22,712 bases of DNA from a virus: the IMG/VR virus record IMGVR_UViG_3300021961_000684, positions 1-22,712 of that record. One strand, given 5' to 3'. The first letter of the stretch is position 1; each line of letters begins with the position of its first letter. Below, one piece after another: positions 11,716-18,058 of the stretch. A program made the position numbers and the translations under genes. Under the pieces are notes generated by a model, which had not been told where the DNA came from, did no database searches, and saw only the letters and a list, made by a program, of their open reading frames with translations.

Positions 11716-12912
11716 ATGATTAACAAAGAACCATTTCAACAACTGATAGACAAATTAAAAGCAGAAGGAAAATATCGGGTTTTTAACGATATTCTTCGCG
11801 AAGCTGGGGACTACCCGCATGCCATATGGTACGGGCCCTACAACATCAAAAAGATCGTTAATTGGTGCTCAAACGATTATCTGGGCATGGGTCAGCATAA
11901 AGTAGTCTTAGACGCCATGCGTACAGCACTAGATCAAACAGGGGCAGGTTCGGGCGGTACTCGCAATATCGCAGGAACCAGTCACTATCACGTGGCCTTA
12001 GAACACGAGCTAGCGACCCTACACAAGAAAGCTGGTGCCCTGTTGTTCAGTTCTGCGTATGTGGCCAATGAATGGACTTTGATCGCTCTGGCAAAGATCT
12101 TGCCCAATATTGAATTCGTGTCTGACAGCAAGAACCACGCTAGCCTTATAGAAGGTATGCGTCATAGTCGAGCACCTAAACATGTGTTCAAGCACAACGA
12201 TCTAGATAATTTAAAAACTATCTTAGAAGATGTCACAGAAAGGAAAAAAACGCCCTGTGTGGTATTAGAGTCTGTATATTCTATGGACGGTGATATTTCT
12301 AAATTGAAAGAAATAGTCAAGCTCAGTAGATTATATGCTGCTATTATCTACGTAGACGAAGTCCATGCTGTAGGCCTTTACGGAGAACACGGTGCTGGTA
12401 TCATCGAGAAACTAGGATTAGAAATTGACGTTGACATAGTCAACGGTACGCTTGGGAAAGCCTATGGAGTACAAGGCGGCTATATTGCCGCTGACAAAAT
12501 AGTAATCGATGCTATTAGATCAATCGCCAGCGGATTTATATTCACAACATCAATGAGCCCTGTAACCTGTGCTGGTGCGTTGGCCGCGGTCAAGTATCTT
12601 AAAGAAAACAACGAGCTTAGGATACAACATCAAGAACGTGCGGCCAAACTAAAACAGATGCTACGTGATAACGGTTTACCTGTAATGGATTCTGAAACTC
12701 ACATAGTGCCTGTGCTGGTTGGTGATGCGTTTCGATGTAAGAAGATATCTGATACCTTGCTCAACGAGTATAATATCTATGTACAGGCCATCAACTATCC
12801 AACAGTGCCTGTGGGCACGGAGAGACTACGGTTCGCTCCTACTCCCTATCATACAGATGCTATGATGAGCGACCTAGTTGAAAAGTTAACTATCTGCTTT
12901 AATACCCTCTAA
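11716..12912 (+). CDS. hemA: 5-aminolevulinate synthase (phage-encoded ALAS)
   Basis: This PLP enzyme condenses glycine and succinyl-CoA to 5-aminolevulinate, the first step of tetrapyrrole synthesis by the Shemin (C4) route. The 398 residues match bacterial ALAS end to end. Visible are WCSNDYLGMGQH (50-61), GAGSGGTRNI (77-86) with the Thr82 typical of ALAS rather than Ser of related synthases, NHASLIEG (140-147), ESVYSMDGD (185-193), DEVHAVGLYG with Asp214 and His217, the PLP lysine Lys248 in GTLGKAYG, and the substrate-binding Arg372 in GTERLRF. Arg21 in KYRVF fits the glycine/carboxyl site. Nothing essential is missing, so it is probably active. It stands alone, opposite to all neighbours, with a weak CGGA ribosome site, and its 3' end overlaps the convergent gene by 14 nt. 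Viral alaS genes have been reported in aquatic phages; no heme oxygenase lies in this window. Confidence 0.96.
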   Translation: MINKEPFQQLIDKLKAEGKYRVFNDILREAGDYPHAIWYGPYNIKKIVNWCSNDYLGMGQHKVVLDAMRTALDQTGAGSGGTRNIAGTSHYHVALEHELATLHKKAGALLFSSAYVANEWTLIALAKILPNIEFVSDSKNHASLIEGMRHSRAPKHVFKHNDLDNLKTILEDVTERKKTPCVVLESVYSMDGDISKLKEIVKLSRLYAAIIYVDEVHAVGLYGEHGAGIIEKLGLEIDVDIVNGTLGKAYGVQGGYIAADKIVIDAIRSIASGFIFTTSMSPVTCAGALAAVKYLKENNELRIQHQERAAKLKQMLRDNGLPVMDSETHIVPVLVGDAFRCKKISDTLLNEYNIYVQAINYPTVPVGTERLRFAPTPYHTDAMMSDLVEKLTICFNTL

Positions 12913-13687
12913 CGTATTTTGTACCTTTGATCTGCCACAGCATCTTTTCTTGATAATCTTTGTTAAAGTCGTCATAGGTTTTAACAGTTTCAAGAATAGA
13001 ATCTGTGTGAGCAACAAACTCTTCATCGAACTCCTGATCAGGAAAAGTCTGCTTGAGCCAAGCAAGGTAATGACTGGGCAAGGGATGCAGGTCAACAACT
13101 GGCCTAGTTAAAGGAACACCGAACATCGCAGCATCCCTAACTGTCATAGGCTTACCAGTATAACCTAGCCCGTCTACGAATTCCTGTATAGGCTCACCTA
13201 CCCAAAGATTAGACTCTAACACAGGTGTTAGGAAATCCAAGCCGGGAAACTTATCTAGATCTACGGCCATATCTGTTCTAGAAATAAACAAGACTTTAGC
13301 AGATGTAGATCTCAGAAGAGATTCAGCATAGTTTATCAGGGTCAGTGAATCGTAGATATAGCTATCTTCTTTCCATGTATCTTTGATGTACTGTATTTCT
13401 TTGTCTTTGATAAAAATACTGCCGCCTAGTCTCCAGCTGGTTTCGGGAAACAATCCGCTAATATGTTGGTCATATCTATGATAATCTGTCCACTGTACTA
13501 CAACAGTATCATTTTCGGTCAGCGTGTTCTTTAACACACATTCGCTGATACGCTGTGCCGTAGCACGATTACCTGTGCCAGATATACCCCAATTAAAGAA
13601 TTGATCGTAGTTACGACCTAGTATATCAGCCCAGGTAGGCCAGTTCCACTGTGTGAAGCTACAGCCGAATGTGAACAGTCTTCTCAT
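12899..13687 (-). CDS. SGNH/GDSL-hydrolase-like protein, 262 aa
   Basis: SGNH enzymes are serine esterases or lipases, often deacylating sugars or lipids. The layout is visible: FGCSFT with candidate nucleophile Ser10, NWGISGTGN (32-40) as the Gly/Asn block, a strand [11 protein letters not shown] (62-72) in the place of block III, and [13 protein letters not shown] (199-211) resembling the C-terminal Asp-His block, although the spacing between Asp199 and His201 is one residue shorter than the usual DxxH. His206 is an alternative. There is no signal peptide. It starts inside the clpP stop (ATGA), so it is the second gene of a two-gene unit from the clpP promoter. Related SGNH-like proteins occur widely in marine phages; substrate is unknown. 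Confidence 0.75.
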
Positions 13688-14274
13688 GGACGGTTTGTGA
13701 TTATCTTGTCTACGAGGCCGTAATCTAGAGCTTCCTGTGCTGACATGAACTTGTCACGTTCCATATCTGCTGAAAACTGATCGAAAGTCTTGCCTTTAGA
13801 GTTATGCTTGACATAGATCTCTGTGAGGTTCCGTTTCATCTTGAGGATCTCTTCCGCCTGGATCTGGATGTCTGTGGCCTGCCCCCGAGCACCGCCACTG
13901 GGTTGATGTATCATGTGACGAGCATTGGGCAACATATAACGTTTACCGGCAGCACCTGCCTGTGCTAATAGACTGCCCATAGAGCAGGCCTGACCCATAA
14001 CATAGGTAGCCACGTCGCATTTGATAAACTGCATGGTATCGTAGATGCTCATCCCCGCAGTAACCACTCCGCCCGGACTATTAATAAACAGACTGATCTG
14101 TTTATCTGGGCTTTCAGATTCTAAGAATAGCAATTGGGCGACAACCAAATTAGCCATGTGGTCTTCGATTGGACCGTTTAACATAATAATACGCTCTCTT
14201 AGCAATCTGCTATAGATATCGTATGCTCGCTCGCCCTTGCTGGACGACTCAATTACCATTGGTACTAGGGTCAT
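13684..14274 (-). CDS. clpP: ATP-dependent Clp protease proteolytic subunit
   Basis: A complete ClpP of 196 residues, the normal mature length. ClpP forms a double heptameric barrel fed by ClpX or ClpA. The catalytic triad is intact: Ser98 in GQACSMGS, His123 in [10 protein letters not shown] and Asp174 in [29 protein letters not shown] (64-81) and the N-terminal [20 protein letters not shown] segment are also typical. No Clp ATPase gene is in the window, so it may work with the host ATPase, or serve in capsid maturation as ClpP-like proteases do in some phages. The ATG is preceded by AAAGGA. A sigma70-type promoter lies upstream, and the SGNH gene is coupled downstream. Confidence 0.96.
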
Positions 14275-14386: not shown

Positions 14387-14896
14387 ATGAGCACACTACT
14401 CTTGAACGCAGATATGCAACCTGTTAGCCTTCTACCACTAAGCACGGTAGATTGGCAGGAAGCCATACGCTACCTCGTTCTGGACAAGGTAGAAGTATTG
14501 GCATGGCATGACGACTGGATCGTGAGATCCGCACGTTGGGAAACACCAGTGCCTGCGGTTATTATGCTCAAAGAGTATCAACGACCAAAGAGCACTATGC
14601 GACTCAGCAAACGCAACGTATTCCTAAGAGATGAATATCTCTGCCAATACTGCGGCTGTGAAGTCACCGAGGCCAATGCTACTTTGGACCATGTACATCC
14701 TGTAAGCCTAGGTGGTAAGACCACTTGGGAAAACTCGACTACGGCCTGTAAGCCCTGTAACTATCGCAAAGCAGCCCATACCAAAATGAAGCCAAAGCAC
14801 CCACCGCACAAGCCTCATTTCTGGGAATTGGTAGACAAGCGTAAGCGTCGTGGCTATCATATACAGCATCCAAGCTGGGCCGATTTCTTGGCTTGA
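14387..14896 (+). CDS. HNH endonuclease with zinc-ribbon cysteines, 169 aa
   Basis: This is a standalone HNH nuclease of the type found in many bacteria. The N-terminal 80 residues (LLLNADMQPVSLLPLSTVDW, VFLRDEYLCQYCG) are characteristic of that family. The nuclease core shows C86-x2-C89, Asp101-His102 in LDHVHPVSLGG, Asn116 in WENSTTA, and C121-x2-C124 followed by Asn125, giving a zinc-stabilised beta-beta-alpha-metal fold. These enzymes cut or nick DNA; the target is unknown. Context next to a DNA methyltransferase and a second HNH gene suggests roles in DNA modification/restriction, host DNA breakdown or homing. The -35 of the next promoter overlaps its stop codon. Confidence 0.88.
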   Translation: MSTLLLNADMQPVSLLPLSTVDWQEAIRYLVLDKVEVLAWHDDWIVRSARWETPVPAVIMLKEYQRPKSTMRLSKRNVFLRDEYLCQYCGCEVTEANATLDHVHPVSLGGKTTWENSTTACKPCNYRKAAHTKMKPKHPPHKPHFWELVDKRKRRGYHIQHPSWADFLA

Positions 14897-14921
14897 CTTT
14901 ACAAGGGCTGTCTAGTATAAT
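14893..14921 (+). promoter_or_regulatory. Strong sigma70 promoter for the methyltransferase
   Basis: TTGACT, a 17-bp spacer and a perfect TATAAT. The -35 overlaps the TGA of the upstream HNH gene. Its position rules against a TTG start at 14893 and supports the ATG at 14947 for the methyltransferase. Confidence 0.8.
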
Positions 14922-14928
14922 TACTAGA
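14911..14928 (+). repeat. Palindrome over the -10 of the methyltransferase promoter
   Basis: TCTAGTA, 4-base TAAT, TACTAGA: 7-bp arms covering the -10 box and the expected transcription start. This is a good place for a repressor operator. Confidence 0.5.
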
Positions 14929-14946
14929 TGGCCCTTAGGATCACTG

Positions 14947-15897
14947 ATGCCTCTAATTAAACCGTTAAAACCTGTCAACTATCATTTGGATTCTGTGACC
15001 ATCCAGGACATAGAATCTCATAAGAGCATCACTACGACAGAACTACGTAAAGATCTCGCTAATCTTGACAAGTTCTCCGCGACCAGCAATGAGAATAATT
15101 TCGCAGGGAATCCATTTCTATATCATCACCAATTCAAAAATCTATTGAACTGTCGTAGGCAAGATGGCAAGACTATCTATGAGATCTGGGCAGATCCTGA
15201 CGAGCGACAAAAGCTAATTGAACAGACCAAGCAACGCAACCGCGGAGGTCGAACTGCCGCAGGCAATGTCTTTGAATGTTTCCGTATCAACCTAGGCAGT
15301 GTCGTCATGTTCAAAGCGACCACAGCCAAATATCTTTATAAAAAGTACAAGGCCACTGGCGTGTTAGATCCTACAGCAGGTTGGGGCGGCCGTATGCTAG
15401 GTGCGTGGGCCTTAGGCATAGACTACACAGGCATCGATACCAATGTAGAAATGATTCCTGCCTACGACCAGATGATCGCTTTCTTAAATGCCGAGACAGC
15501 AGCCAAGAACAGACTGTTCGAAGCAGATCCTTTTGAACTTAAAATGATTTGGTCTAGCTGTTTGGACGTAGACTTCACACAGATCAAATATGATTTCGTT
15601 CTAACTTCGCCGCCGTACATCAATCTAGAACTCTACGAACACATGGAGCCTTGGCAGAACGACCGAGCGTTCTATGAACTGTTCTTCATCCCTCTTTGGC
15701 AAAAGTGTGTGGACAATATCCAAAAAGGCGGGCATGTGGCGTTTAACATATCGCCCAAAATGTACGAGGATGCTGTCAAGCACGGCCTATCCCCTTGCCA
15801 CGAGGAAGAAGATCTTCTACAACAGATGGGCCAAAAGCACGAAGATCTTAAAAAGGGCAAGAAGAAGCAGGACAAGATCTACGTTTGGAAATGCTAG
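14947..15897 (+). CDS. DNA methyltransferase-like protein with TSPPY motif, 316 aa
   Basis: The protein has the parts of an amino-methyltransferase (N6-adenine or N4-cytosine): the SAM-binding motif I as LDPTAGWGGRMLGA (140-153) with acidic GIDTN (162-166) after the next strand, and the catalytic TSPPY at 220-224 (the SPPY form is commonest in N4-cytosine enzymes). GGHVAFNIS (261-269) fits a later strand. The N-terminal 120 residues (ending in RNRGGRTAAGNVFE) are a probable target-recognition or accessory region. The tail is lysine-rich. I chose the ATG at 14947, preceded by TTAGGA and downstream of the promoter, instead of an in-frame TTG at 14893. It could protect phage DNA from host or phage-encoded nucleases; the base and sequence methylated are not visible. 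Confidence 0.82.
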   Translation: MPLIKPLKPVNYHLDSVTIQDIESHKSITTTELRKDLANLDKFSATSNENNFAGNPFLYHHQFKNLLNCRRQDGKTIYEIWADPDERQKLIEQTKQRNRGGRTAAGNVFECFRINLGSVVMFKATTAKYLYKKYKATGVLDPTAGWGGRMLGAWALGIDYTGIDTNVEMIPAYDQMIAFLNAETAAKNRLFEADPFELKMIWSSCLDVDFTQIKYDFVLTSPPYINLELYEHMEPWQNDRAFYELFFIPLWQKCVDNIQKGGHVAFNISPKMYEDAVKHGLSPCHEEEDLLQQMGQKHEDLKKGKKKQDKIYVWKC

Positions 15898-15898
15898 G

Positions 15899-15927
15899 TT
15901 GACTTATAGCTAATTCTTTAGTATACT
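15899..15927 (+). promoter_or_regulatory. Strong sigma70 promoter for the ParB-like/HNH pair
   Basis: TTGACT, 17 bp, TATACT, starting directly after the methyltransferase stop. The leader to the ATG at 15996 is about 60 nt and holds two inverted repeats. Confidence 0.75.
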
Positions 15928-15929
15928 AA
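15918..15929 (+). repeat. 12-bp perfect palindrome over the -10
   Basis: TTAGTATACTAA is a perfect palindrome covering the -10 hexamer. It shares the TAGTA/TACTA half-sites with the palindrome at the methyltransferase promoter. Confidence 0.5.
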
Positions 15930-15932
15930 CAA

Positions 15933-15974
15933 TACTTGTTAATCAAGTAATCACAGTCGTTTGTTAATCAAACG
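15933..15974 (+). repeat. Two tandem inverted repeats in the leader of the ParB-like gene
   Basis: TACTTG-TTAAT-CAAGTA (15933-15949) and CGTTTG-TTAAT-CAAACG (15958-15974) are 6-bp stems with an identical TTAAT loop, 25 bp centre to centre, sharing the core TTGTTAATCAA. They begin at about the transcription start. They could be operators in DNA or hairpins in the leader RNA. Confidence 0.6.
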
Positions 15975-15995
15975 CATTAACTATAGGAAATTGTT

Positions 15996-17195
15996 ATGTA
16001 TCACAAAAAAATAACCGATAAGTTTGGCACGGACTTGTTCGATGTATTGGGCCCAAAAGAAACTCGTGTCCCTTGGAACTCACTAAGCCTCACAGAGCAA
16101 ACAGCTCGAATTAATAGAATCCCAGAATATGTTAATACTCGGTCGTTGGGTTCGCATCCAACGTTCGTAGACATGCTGTGTTTCTGTTTTCAGAAATTAG
16201 TTAACATGGGCGATGACAACCCACTAAAGGGCATCGACCTACCTGAGTTCAGTTCACTCAATGAAGCGGCAGAGAAAATGAAAATGCCCGCTATGAACTA
16301 TGATCCTACAAACTTACACGACATTATAATTTTAGTAAAGAACGCTGCCAAACAGCGAGACATTTTCCTGCGTCATATCTTTGCTGACATCGTGTTCCGC
16401 TTTAATCCTGGACTTGTGTTTCCAGGTATTGGACGTATGAATTCAAAAGGACAGTTGTTTGTCAACGATGCTCAACATCGTACATTGGCCTGTATGATCC
16501 TTGGCATCGAACAAGTACCGTTGAGCTTTATTCGTTCTGACGATGAGTATTGGGATGTTGCTCAATATGCTGCCATCAATATTCACAGCCTAACTGCTAG
16601 TCCGTTCGATCACTATCGCATTCGTGTACAACGAGCAAACGCCAGTGAAGAAGCAAACATGCCCATAGAAAAAGAAGATAAGATCTGTAAGGAAATGGAT
16701 GCTCTGTTTAATGAACTAGAAGTCGTTGTGGTTGAAAAGAAAGATACAGTGGGTTCCAATTCTAAAGTGCTTACAGGCATTGGTAACATGGTCAAGTATC
16801 GTAAAGACTATTCTAAAGATGCTTTTGAACGAGCAGTTACGATCAATGCTATTCTATTCCCGACTTGTGTGTTTCAAACTGCCAACAGTTGGGGACTCAT
16901 GGAGTTCTTAGAGCATCAGGACAAGAAAGTAGACAAGAAAGAGTTTGATTACAAACTTCGTAGTGCGTTACGCAAGGCTTGGCAAAAACCCAACCAAGGC
17001 AATCGTCTTCACAAAGACATCAAAGACTGTTACAAAGATCAAACAGACTCTGAAGCTAACAACAGTCGTGTGCCAGAGCCTGTGATCATCGCACACGGTA
17101 TTTGGCAAGTGTGTAAAAAGTATGAACCAGACGGCAATTGGATTGAACCGCCATGGCCTGCTAAGATGCAAAAGTTCAAAATGGACTTGGTATGA
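15996..17195 (+). CDS. ParB-like (DGQHR-type) phage protein, 399 aa
   Basis: The recognisable part is LFVNDAQHRTLACMILGIEQVPLSFI (split around residues 154-179), a variant of the DGQHR signature of ParB/sulfiredoxin-fold domains in which Asp-Gly is replaced by Asp-Ala. In this fold the motif binds nucleotide or DNA; relatives include phage ParB-like proteins and DndB-type regulators. The rest (residues 180-399) is mostly helical, lysine-rich and tryptophan-containing near the end, without a known domain. AGGA lies 7 nt before the ATG. The HNH gene downstream starts inside its stop codon (ATGA), so the two products are probably made together. Exact function is unknown. Confidence 0.7.
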   Translation: MYHKKITDKFGTDLFDVLGPKETRVPWNSLSLTEQTARINRIPEYVNTRSLGSHPTFVDMLCFCFQKLVNMGDDNPLKGIDLPEFSSLNEAAEKMKMPAMNYDPTNLHDIIILVKNAAKQRDIFLRHIFADIVFRFNPGLVFPGIGRMNSKGQLFVNDAQHRTLACMILGIEQVPLSFIRSDDEYWDVAQYAAINIHSLTASPFDHYRIRVQRANASEEANMPIEKEDKICKEMDALFNELEVVVVEKKDTVGSNSKVLTGIGNMVKYRKDYSKDAFERAVTINAILFPTCVFQTANSWGLMEFLEHQDKKVDKKEFDYKLRSALRKAWQKPNQGNRLHKDIKDCYKDQTDSEANNSRVPEPVIIAHGIWQVCKKYEPDGNWIEPPWPAKMQKFKMDLV

Positions 17196-17665
17196 AGAAC
17201 TGGACTATTGTAAACGAGTCTATTAATGCTCGTGAACCCTACACTAGTCCAGACGAGGGCACATACTACAATAGAGATTTGTTCAAACACTTTTGTAGAA
17301 ACAAAGACTATAAGTATGTGGCCATCTTTGGCTACTACAAAAGCAAATACAATTGGACTGAGGAACAGGCCCAAAATATGTACGACAAAAGCCCAGACGG
17401 GTGGACAGACGGTCTAGGTGTATATCGTTTATTTGATTGGGGCAAGGGTGAAAACAAACTTAAGATTGGGGAGGATTGGGAATGGCATGAGCCTCAATTG
17501 GATCATATAATTCCTAGGTCAAAGGGCGGGCAAGACACGCCCGAGAACTTCCAGGTATTGCCTGCTATCATTAACAGGATTTTGAGCAACCTCACCGACG
17601 AGTCAGCACCCGCAGTTTTGCCTATTGTTTTGGAACAATTCTCTTCGATTGACAAAAGTCACTAA
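17192..17665 (+). CDS. HNH endonuclease, coupled to the ParB-like gene, 157 aa
   Basis: The HNH core is at residues 99-128: Asp104-His105 in QLDHIIPRSKGGQDTPENF, Asn119, and Asn128 in place of the final His, so an HNN-type site. Unlike the HNH protein upstream it has no cysteine pairs. Residues 1-98 are an aromatic-rich region with no known domain (YKYVAIFGYYKSKYNW), possibly for DNA binding or partner contact. Translation is coupled to the ParB-like gene by ATGA overlap. The -35 of the next promoter lies inside the last codons. Cutting activity is likely, target unknown. Confidence 0.8.
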   Translation: MKNWTIVNESINAREPYTSPDEGTYYNRDLFKHFCRNKDYKYVAIFGYYKSKYNWTEEQAQNMYDKSPDGWTDGLGVYRLFDWGKGENKLKIGEDWEWHEPQLDHIIPRSKGGQDTPENFQVLPAIINRILSNLTDESAPAVLPIVLEQFSSIDKSH

Positions 17666-17677
17666 CGGTGCTATAAT
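17649..17677 (+). promoter_or_regulatory. Perfect-consensus sigma70 promoter for the ligase operon
   Basis: TTGACA, a 17-bp spacer and TATAAT, all twelve consensus positions matched. It lies across the 3' end of the HNH gene and drives the unit starting at the GTG at 17708. Confidence 0.88.
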
Positions 17678-17707: not shown

Positions 17708-18058
17708 GTGCGATATTACATTGTCAGTTGGGATAATTTGGGTGTAGAGTTCTTTCAAGAAATCACAGAACATCACCCAGATATTTGGGCTAAGAATCAT
17801 TTGTTTGACAGCATCAAGCAAAGCAAGAAAGTAGAAAAGCCATTGAGTTTTAACTTAGAGGCCTTGATCCTAAGAGCTCAAGTTAACACGCATCGCCACT
17901 ATGAGATCTATGTGTTCACATCAGAAGAAGACATAGGTCGTGACGAAATTGAACGTTGGTTTGAACGTGACCCACAAGGTTTCGCCAATTGGGTTCGCGA
18001 CAATCACAGCAATAAATTATACAGTAATCGAAAAACAACTAAAGACGTGATCGTCTAA
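17708..18058 (+). CDS. Conserved phage protein of unknown function, 116 aa
   Basis: Starts at GTG with a good TAGGAG site 7 nt upstream. The protein starts MRYYIVSWDNLGVEFF and contains LILRAQVNTHRHYEIYVF and a C-terminal FANWVRDNHSNKLYSNRK. I recall short proteins with this WDxLGxE start and RHYEIY segment in many phages infecting marine and other bacteria; no function is known to me. As first gene after the strongest promoter of the window it is probably expressed early and at a high level. Confidence 0.8.
   Translation: MRYYIVSWDNLGVEFFQEITEHHPDIWAKNHLFDSIKQSKKVEKPLSFNLEALILRAQVNTHRHYEIYVFTSEEDIGRDEIERWFERDPQGFANWVRDNHSNKLYSNRKTTKDVIV

What the first reader, a model, noticed from the sequence alone, without database searches (positions are those of the whole stretch)
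14387..17665. Methyltransferase flanked by two different HNH proteins and a ParB-like partner
HNH (zinc type), SPPY methyltransferase, ParB-like protein and coupled HNN-type nuclease occur in one block with linked promoter architecture. A methyltransferase with nucleases recalls restriction-modification, and a DGQHR-type protein with an HNH nuclease recalls DndB-like or phage exclusion pairs, but I know no described system with this set. It may let the phage mark its own DNA and destroy host or rival DNA.
Basis: inference. Interest (0 to 1): 0.65.

Follow-up and report, generated by a model that had tools for sequence, protein, structure and literature searches.

The report
Phage ParB-like plus nuclease gene pair
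Inside the reported block, two genes (a ParB-like protein and a small DNA-cutting enzyme) form an inseparable, horizontally moving unit found in about 20 lineages of uncultured phages (some of them giant) and described in no database or paper searched here; the methyltransferase and the other nuclease beside it are ordinary neighbours.

Summary
The four genes are real and at the stated coordinates, but they are not one system. HNH1 (14387-14896) and the SPPY methyltransferase (MT; start more likely 14947) are separately promoted residents. In relatives the MT travels with three unrelated restriction-enzyme-like partners; here it is an orphan. The conserved unit is the last two genes: a ParB/sulfiredoxin-fold DGQHR-type protein (15996-17195) and an HNH protein (17192-17665), overlapping by 4 bp, with their own promoter and leader hairpins. 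In IMG/VR, 70 of 72 fetched DGQHR loci (20 lineages at 95% identity) have the HNH within 100 nt, and none of 71 HNH loci lacks the partner. MT lies in the held flanks of only three lineages. The pair is horizontally mobile: synonymous divergence from L001/L002 is 0.40 for the ParB-like gene against 0.72-0.78 for MT, dN/dS is 0.02-0.04, and an empty site exists (L010). At the same MT-ligase site relatives carry a second coupled pair with a GIY-YIG-like nuclease; both pair types share third genes. Best reading: a portable, two-component, GmrSD/SspE-like DNA-sensing nickase used against competing or host DNA. Function is inferred. Neither gene passes the GmrSD or DndB sequence models, so it is a new variant, not a member.

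The parts
15899..15927 (+). sigma70-type promoter of the pair (TTGACT-17-TATACT)
   Evidence: a comparable promoter lies directly upstream of the DGQHR gene in all 15 divergent loci inspected
15933..15949 (+). leader hairpin 1, TACTTG[TTAAT]CAAGTA
   Evidence: of 262 promoters in all loci held, 12 have this hairpin type and 11 of them precede a DGQHR gene
15958..15974 (+). leader hairpin 2, CGTTTG[TTAAT]CAAACG: same loop, different stem
15996..17195 (+). DGQHR-type ParB/sulfiredoxin-fold protein, 399 aa; first gene of the pair
   Evidence: relatives in 20 lineages
16353..16358 (+). QR motif (Q120-R121), invariant in 15 sequences
   Evidence: motif named in PMC4619093
16467..16481 (+). DAQHR motif (residues 158-162), equivalent of DGQHR/DGQQR
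16566..16580 (+). YxxxN motif (Y191-N195), equivalent of FxxxN
17192..17665 (+). HNH2, 157-aa HNH-family nuclease; second gene of the pair, start overlaps the DGQHR stop (ATGA)
17501..17506 (+). D104-H105 of HNH2 (predicted general base), invariant; with N119 (17546-17548) and N128 (17573-17575) forms D-H-N-N
14387..14896 (+). HNH1, zinc-type HNH protein; neighbour, not part of the pair
14947..15897 (+). SPPY DNA methyltransferase; neighbour, orphan here, paired with restriction-like genes in relatives
17649..17677 (+). promoter of the downstream resident gene (17708-18058); marks the right-hand edge of the inserted pair

Best explanation
The block contains an inserted two-gene cassette (promoter, hairpin leader, ParB/Srx DGQHR-type protein, HNH nuclease). 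Shown: strict pairing, translational coupling, purifying selection, recent horizontal movement as a unit, ParB/Srx fold with counterparts of the three DGQHR-domain motifs, and an HNH active-site signature. Inferred: the two proteins form a complex. The DGQHR protein binds a nucleotide and DNA, senses a feature of that DNA (sequence or modification) and licenses HNH2 to nick it, as the DUF262 half does for the HNH half in GmrSD and SspE. The phage uses it to damage DNA of co-infecting phages or of the host while its own DNA escapes. Relatives show a modular version: at the same site another ParB-like gene is coupled to a GIY-YIG-like nuclease, and the same third genes follow both kinds of pair.
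For: Pairing in both directions: 70/72 DGQHR loci have HNH2 within 100 nt (L066 ends at the contig edge; L030 has a 2OG-oxygenase-like gene in between) and 0/71 HNH2 loci lack DGQHR, down to 25-36% identity. Overlap or near-overlap of the genes (ATGA, TAATG, TAATATG). Distance matrices of the two proteins agree (Mantel r 0.85-0.90, 0/5000 permutations). dN/dS 0.017-0.039 for both genes; synonymous difference 0.40 for DGQHR against 0.72-0.78 for the adjacent MT. Nucleotide identity mostly 85-98% inside the cassette against roughly 55-85% outside, and an empty site in L010. ParB/Noc/KorB/Srx are the top PDB matches (prob up to 0.96) and ParB/Srx phage proteins the top BFVD match, E 1.2e-7; VIA Z 5-6 over residues 104-308. 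Motifs QR, D-x-QHR, YxxxN. HNH2: best match the Gme HNH nicking endonuclease, prob 0.97-0.99, also EcoKMcrA and ScoMcrA. ParB/Srx-DGQQR plus HNH nickase is an established sensor-nuclease design (SspE: PMC9646914; GmrSD: PMC4619093). Partner exchange at the MT-ligase site and shared third genes, L004/L085 50% id E 9e-62 and L103/L079 40% id E 2e-40.
Against: No activity, complex or target has been shown. Foldseek E-values to solved structures are weak (0.015 at best; the fold rests on unanimity of the top ranks). No match to the DUF262, DndB or DUF1524 models. SspE, BrxU and DndB were not among the structural matches listed. The glycine of DGQQR is Ala or Met here. Homology between the HNH-type and GIY-type ParB-like proteins is not significant by profile comparison (p 0.09-0.13). 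How the phage's own DNA escapes is unknown.
Confidence: 0.5

Rival explanations
1. Free-standing homing element: HNH2 cleaves cassette-less alleles near the MT-ligase junction in co-infecting phages, the cassette is copied in by repair, and the DGQHR protein is its DNA-binding or specificity partner.
For: Small HNH proteins in phages are often homing enzymes; the cassette shows clean insertion relative to L010 and recent horizontal transfer; neighbouring loci hold GIY-YIG-like genes. An intron-encoded homing nuclease in phage PhiPA3 also acts in competition (PMC11620839).
Against: Known homing nucleases act as single proteins; here an obligate 400-aa ParB/Srx partner is kept under very strong constraint. 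The pair sits in many unrelated neighbourhoods (GroES/GroEL, ClpX, ligase, others), which does not fit one conserved cut site.
Confidence: 0.25
2. The four genes form one phage restriction-modification system in which MT protects and HNH1/HNH2 cut.
For: They are adjacent in the window, L001 and L002, and four such families are also near each other in L030.
Against: The pair lacks MT in the held flank in 17 of 20 lineages and MT lacks the pair in most loci; MT has other restriction-like partners in relatives; separate promoters; different transfer histories.
Confidence: 0.07
3. Host take-over nuclease: ParB-like spreading on DNA directs HNH2 to degrade the host chromosome for nucleotide recycling.
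For: Structural resemblance to ParB/Noc/KorB clamp proteins covers residues 104-308; phages commonly encode HNH nucleases.
Against: Host-DNA degradation genes are usually fixed core genes of a phage lineage; this pair is accessory, patchy and horizontally moving.
Confidence: 0.1

Closest known systems
GmrSD type IV restriction enzymes (DUF262 + DUF1524; includes BrxU)
   Same: ParB/Srx-fold half with QR, DGQ-R and FxxxN-type motifs joined to an HNH nuclease half with D/E-H-N-N; order ParB core, helical region, HNH; mobile (PMC4619093)
   Different: Two separate overlapping genes; no match to PF03235 or DUF1524; a roughly 100-aa extra helical N-terminus; found only in uncultured phages here, not in bacteria
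SspE (phosphorothioate-sensing nickase)
   Same: DGQQR-type NTPase domain controlling an HNH nickase domain (PMC9646914)
   Different: SspE is one chain tied to SspABCD; no such modification genes were identified among the ORFs examined next to the pair; motif is DAQHR instead of DGQQR
DndB / DGQHR domain (PF14072)
   Same: DGQHR-like motif, QR pair and [FY]xxxN motif, ParB superfamily
   Different: No PF14072 match; partner is a nuclease, not DndCDE
Free-standing phage HNH and GIY-YIG homing endonucleases
   Same: Small mobile nucleases beside conserved phage genes
   Different: Obligate ParB/Srx partner, own promoter and leader hairpins, varied insertion contexts
phrog_2558 proteins of Synechococcus phages (S-IOM18, S-RIM2, S-M1)
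   Same: DGQHT ParB/Srx-like proteins of similar size (BFVD match E 5e-4), encoded next to a DNA-acting enzyme
   Different: Neighbour is a DNA methyltransferase, not a nuclease; the window protein has no PHROG match

Membership tests
GmrSD type IV restriction family | DUF262/GmrSD_N (PF03235) sequence domain | tested here: not met
   No match at E<=1 in hmmscan and none in the window record, while 8 control genomes ring
GmrSD type IV restriction family | ParB/sulfiredoxin fold | tested here: met
   (weak E-values, but ParB/Noc/KorB/Srx fill the top ranks)
GmrSD type IV restriction family | QR, DGQQR and FxxxN motifs | tested here: inconclusive
   QR invariant; D-[AM]-Q-H-R and Y-x-x-x-N instead of DGQQR and FxxxN (motifs from PMC4619093)
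GmrSD type IV restriction family | DUF1524 nuclease half | tested here: not met
   HNH2 matches PF01844 HNH just over its cut-off; DUF1524 not among matches up to E 1
GmrSD type IV restriction family | D/E-H-N-N active-site residues | tested here: met
   D104, H105, N119, N128 invariant in 15 sequences
GmrSD type IV restriction family | NTP-dependent cutting of modified DNA | not testable with these tools
   needs biochemistry
DndB (PF14072) | DndB sequence domain | tested here: not met
   No match; the controls ring in 2 genomes
DndB (PF14072) | dndCDE modification genes nearby | not tested
   The neighbouring ORFs listed were read only by eye; no specific search for dnd genes was made
Free-standing homing endonuclease | single-protein nuclease gene | tested here: not met
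   Obligate two-gene unit
Free-standing homing endonuclease | cuts cassette-less alleles at the insertion site | not testable with these tools
   empty site L010 is known but cutting needs an experiment
Type II restriction-modification with this MT | nuclease and MT consistently linked | tested here: not met
   MT within the held flank of only 3 of 20 lineages that carry the pair
ParB partition proteins | ParA partner and parS sites | not tested
   no dedicated search was run

The most novel reading that the evidence does not exclude
A modular class of phage-borne conflict systems in which a DGQH-type ParB/Srx adaptor targets interchangeable DNA enzymes (HNH in this family, GIY-YIG in sister cassettes at the same site, possibly a methyltransferase in cyanophages) plus an optional third nuclease, with a conserved leader hairpin controlling dose, used by large phages against rival phages.
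Probability: 0.3. Interest if true: 0.82.

Novelty: new variant of a known kind. Interest (0 to 1): 0.58.

Why it matters
Sensor-plus-nickase restriction of the GmrSD/SspE design is known as a bacterial weapon against phages. A split version circulating only among uncultured phages, with swappable nucleases, would mean phages carry the same design themselves, probably in phage-phage conflict. It gives two protein families with no name in Pfam, PHROGs, PADLOC or NCBIfam (beyond generic HNH) a concrete, testable function, and supplies a ready comparison (occupied and empty sites).

Tried and rejected
Four-gene system: rejected by co-occurrence. Relatives in cultured phages: none for DGQHR, HNH2, the L012-type or the L014-type protein. 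Relatives in GTDB genomes: two scans, none. PADLOC: only generic HNH and MTase matches; nothing for DGQHR. Sequence search of the PDB with the profiles: no meaningful match. Profile comparison of the DGQHR family with the L012-type and L014-type ParB-like proteins: p 0.13 and 0.09, so common ancestry is not claimed; L014 and cyanophage P0001 both match phrog_2558, L014 only at E 0.0047. SspE, BrxU and DndB did not appear in the structural lists; this says nothing either way. The covariation count on the hairpins is partly circular, because they were picked as hairpins; I rely on loop conservation, position and specificity instead. GIY-YIG assignment of the L012-type partner rests on motif reading only (Pfam gives none); the L014 partner (E 0.0085) and the L120 third gene (E 0.013) are below Pfam's cut-off. 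Calling the partners upstream of MT restriction-like rests on PD...ExK-type motifs read by eye; PADLOC has no match.
Full report
What is there. The window is a 22.7-kb fragment of an uncultured virus. The four ORFs are present as described. HNH1 is a zinc-type HNH protein that matches PHROG 16726 over nearly its whole length, E 7e-27. MT is an SPPY methyltransferase whose start is more likely ATG 14947, because homologues align from about residue 18 and a promoter sits at 14893-14921. The third protein has no match up to E 1 in PHROGs, PADLOC or NCBIfam and only a sub-threshold chance match in Pfam. The fourth is a weak HNH match. HNH1, MT, DGQHR and the gene after HNH2 each have a sigma70-like promoter; DGQHR and HNH2 share one.

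The unit is the pair. With the window's DGQHR protein, with an alignment of its relatives and with the HNH2 alignment I fetched DGQHR/HNH2 loci from IMG/VR. The pair is adjacent in 70 of 72 loci, which fall into 20 lineages at 95% protein identity. One exception (L066) ends inside DGQHR, the other (L030) has a 2OG-oxygenase-like gene in between; no HNH2 locus lacks DGQHR. Counts of loci include overlapping fetches of the same contig; the 20 lineages are the safer figure. MT is in the held flank of only three lineages, HNH1 of seven. MT itself was found in 39 loci, mostly without the pair. So the four-gene set is a local coincidence of independently distributed parts, while the pair is real far beyond chance.

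How it moves. L010 shows the site without the pair: MT stop, promoter, next gene. In the window, L001 and L002 a segment made of promoter, leader, DGQHR and HNH2 lies between MT and the promoter of the next gene. Inside the segment nucleotide identity to L001 and L002 is mostly 85-98%; outside it is roughly 55-85%. Synonymous difference is 0.40 for DGQHR and 0.43-0.58 for HNH2, against 0.72-0.78 for MT, and dN/dS is 0.02-0.04 for both genes of the pair. The distance matrices of the two proteins agree (Mantel r 0.85 without the most divergent pair, 0.90 with it; 0 of 5000 permutations). The pair therefore moved as a unit and is under strong purifying selection. Distant members sit beside GroES/GroEL, ClpX, ligase or other genes. 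Contigs of 331-364 kb carry it.

Leader hairpins. The DGQHR leader carries one or two hairpins with a G[T..AT]C loop and stems that differ between loci, and even between the two copies in the window. Among 262 promoters in all loci held, 12 are followed by this hairpin, and 11 of these precede DGQHR (folds). Not every lineage has it (L063, L067, L069 and L029 do not by this rule). A role in dosage control of a nuclease is plausible but untested.

Structure. AlphaFold2 with 15 sequences gives pLDDT 82.5 for DGQHR. The best solved matches are Noc, ParB, KorB and sulfiredoxins, with VIA Z 5-6 for residues 104-308; the best viral models are ParB/sulfiredoxin phage proteins, E 1.2e-7. The three motifs listed for the DGQHR/GmrS domain (QR, DGQ-R, FxxxN; PMC4619093) have counterparts in Q120-R121, D158-A-Q-H-R162 and Y191-xxx-N195. 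HNH2 (pLDDT 78) resembles the Gme HNH nickase and, more weakly, EcoKMcrA and ScoMcrA, with invariant D104, H105, N119 and N128.

Sister cassettes. At the same MT-ligase site L012 and L013 carry a 376-aa protein coupled to a GIY-YIG-like gene, a pairing seen in every locus of that family inspected. L014 carries a DGQHT protein with another GIY-YIG-like gene. Third genes after the pair are shared between HNH-type and GIY-type cassettes (L004/L085, L103/L079). Sequence comparison does not prove that the ParB-like proteins are related, so functional equivalence is inferred from architecture and location. In Synechococcus phages a DGQHT protein that the structure search links to this fold sits beside a DNA methyltransferase.

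Mechanism. The nearest known design is GmrSD/SspE: a ParB/Srx-like domain with a DGQQR motif hydrolyses NTP upon sensing DNA and switches on an HNH nickase (PMC9646914). I take the pair to be a split, phage-borne device of this kind, aimed at competing phage or host DNA. Everything from complex formation onwards is inference. The homing alternative is the main rival. Membership in GmrSD or DndB is not claimed, because their sequence models do not match.

Noticed in passing
window 11716-12912 (+): Phage-encoded 5-aminolevulinate synthase (TIGR01821, 572 bits, cut-off 339). Such Shemin-pathway genes in aquatic phages are already reported (PMC11480375).
   Followed up: partly
L001:6226-6945, L008:4113-4880, L020:1849-3000, L035:3389-4507: The MT gene is preceded in relatives by at least three unrelated restriction-like gene families, often overlapping MT by a few bases, while MT itself stays well conserved: a methyltransferase with exchangeable partners.
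   Followed up: partly
L075-L087 and L012-L014: A 370-aa uncharacterised protein strictly coupled to a 127-141 aa GIY-YIG-like gene, with its own conserved structured leader (TAACCYAC..GGTTAGAG hairpin), at the same MT-ligase site in L012 and L013.
   Followed up: partly
L004:4560-5078 with L085:5477-5986; L103:710-1219 with L079:5501-6013: Third genes shared by HNH-type and GIY-type cassettes (50% and 40% identity), GIY-YIG-like by eye.
   Followed up: partly
L088:23697-25635, L089:3791-5709, L090:3968-5920: Synechococcus phages keep a DGQHT ParB/Srx-like protein (phrog_2558) directly upstream of a DNA methyltransferase.
   Followed up: partly
window 13684-14274 (-): ClpP-like protease (NF001368, 321 bits), adjacent to HNH1 in many of the relatives.
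   Followed up: no
L030:4998-6920: A divergent ParB-like plus HNH pair split by a 2OG-oxygenase-like gene, next to a restriction-like gene and MT.
   Followed up: partly
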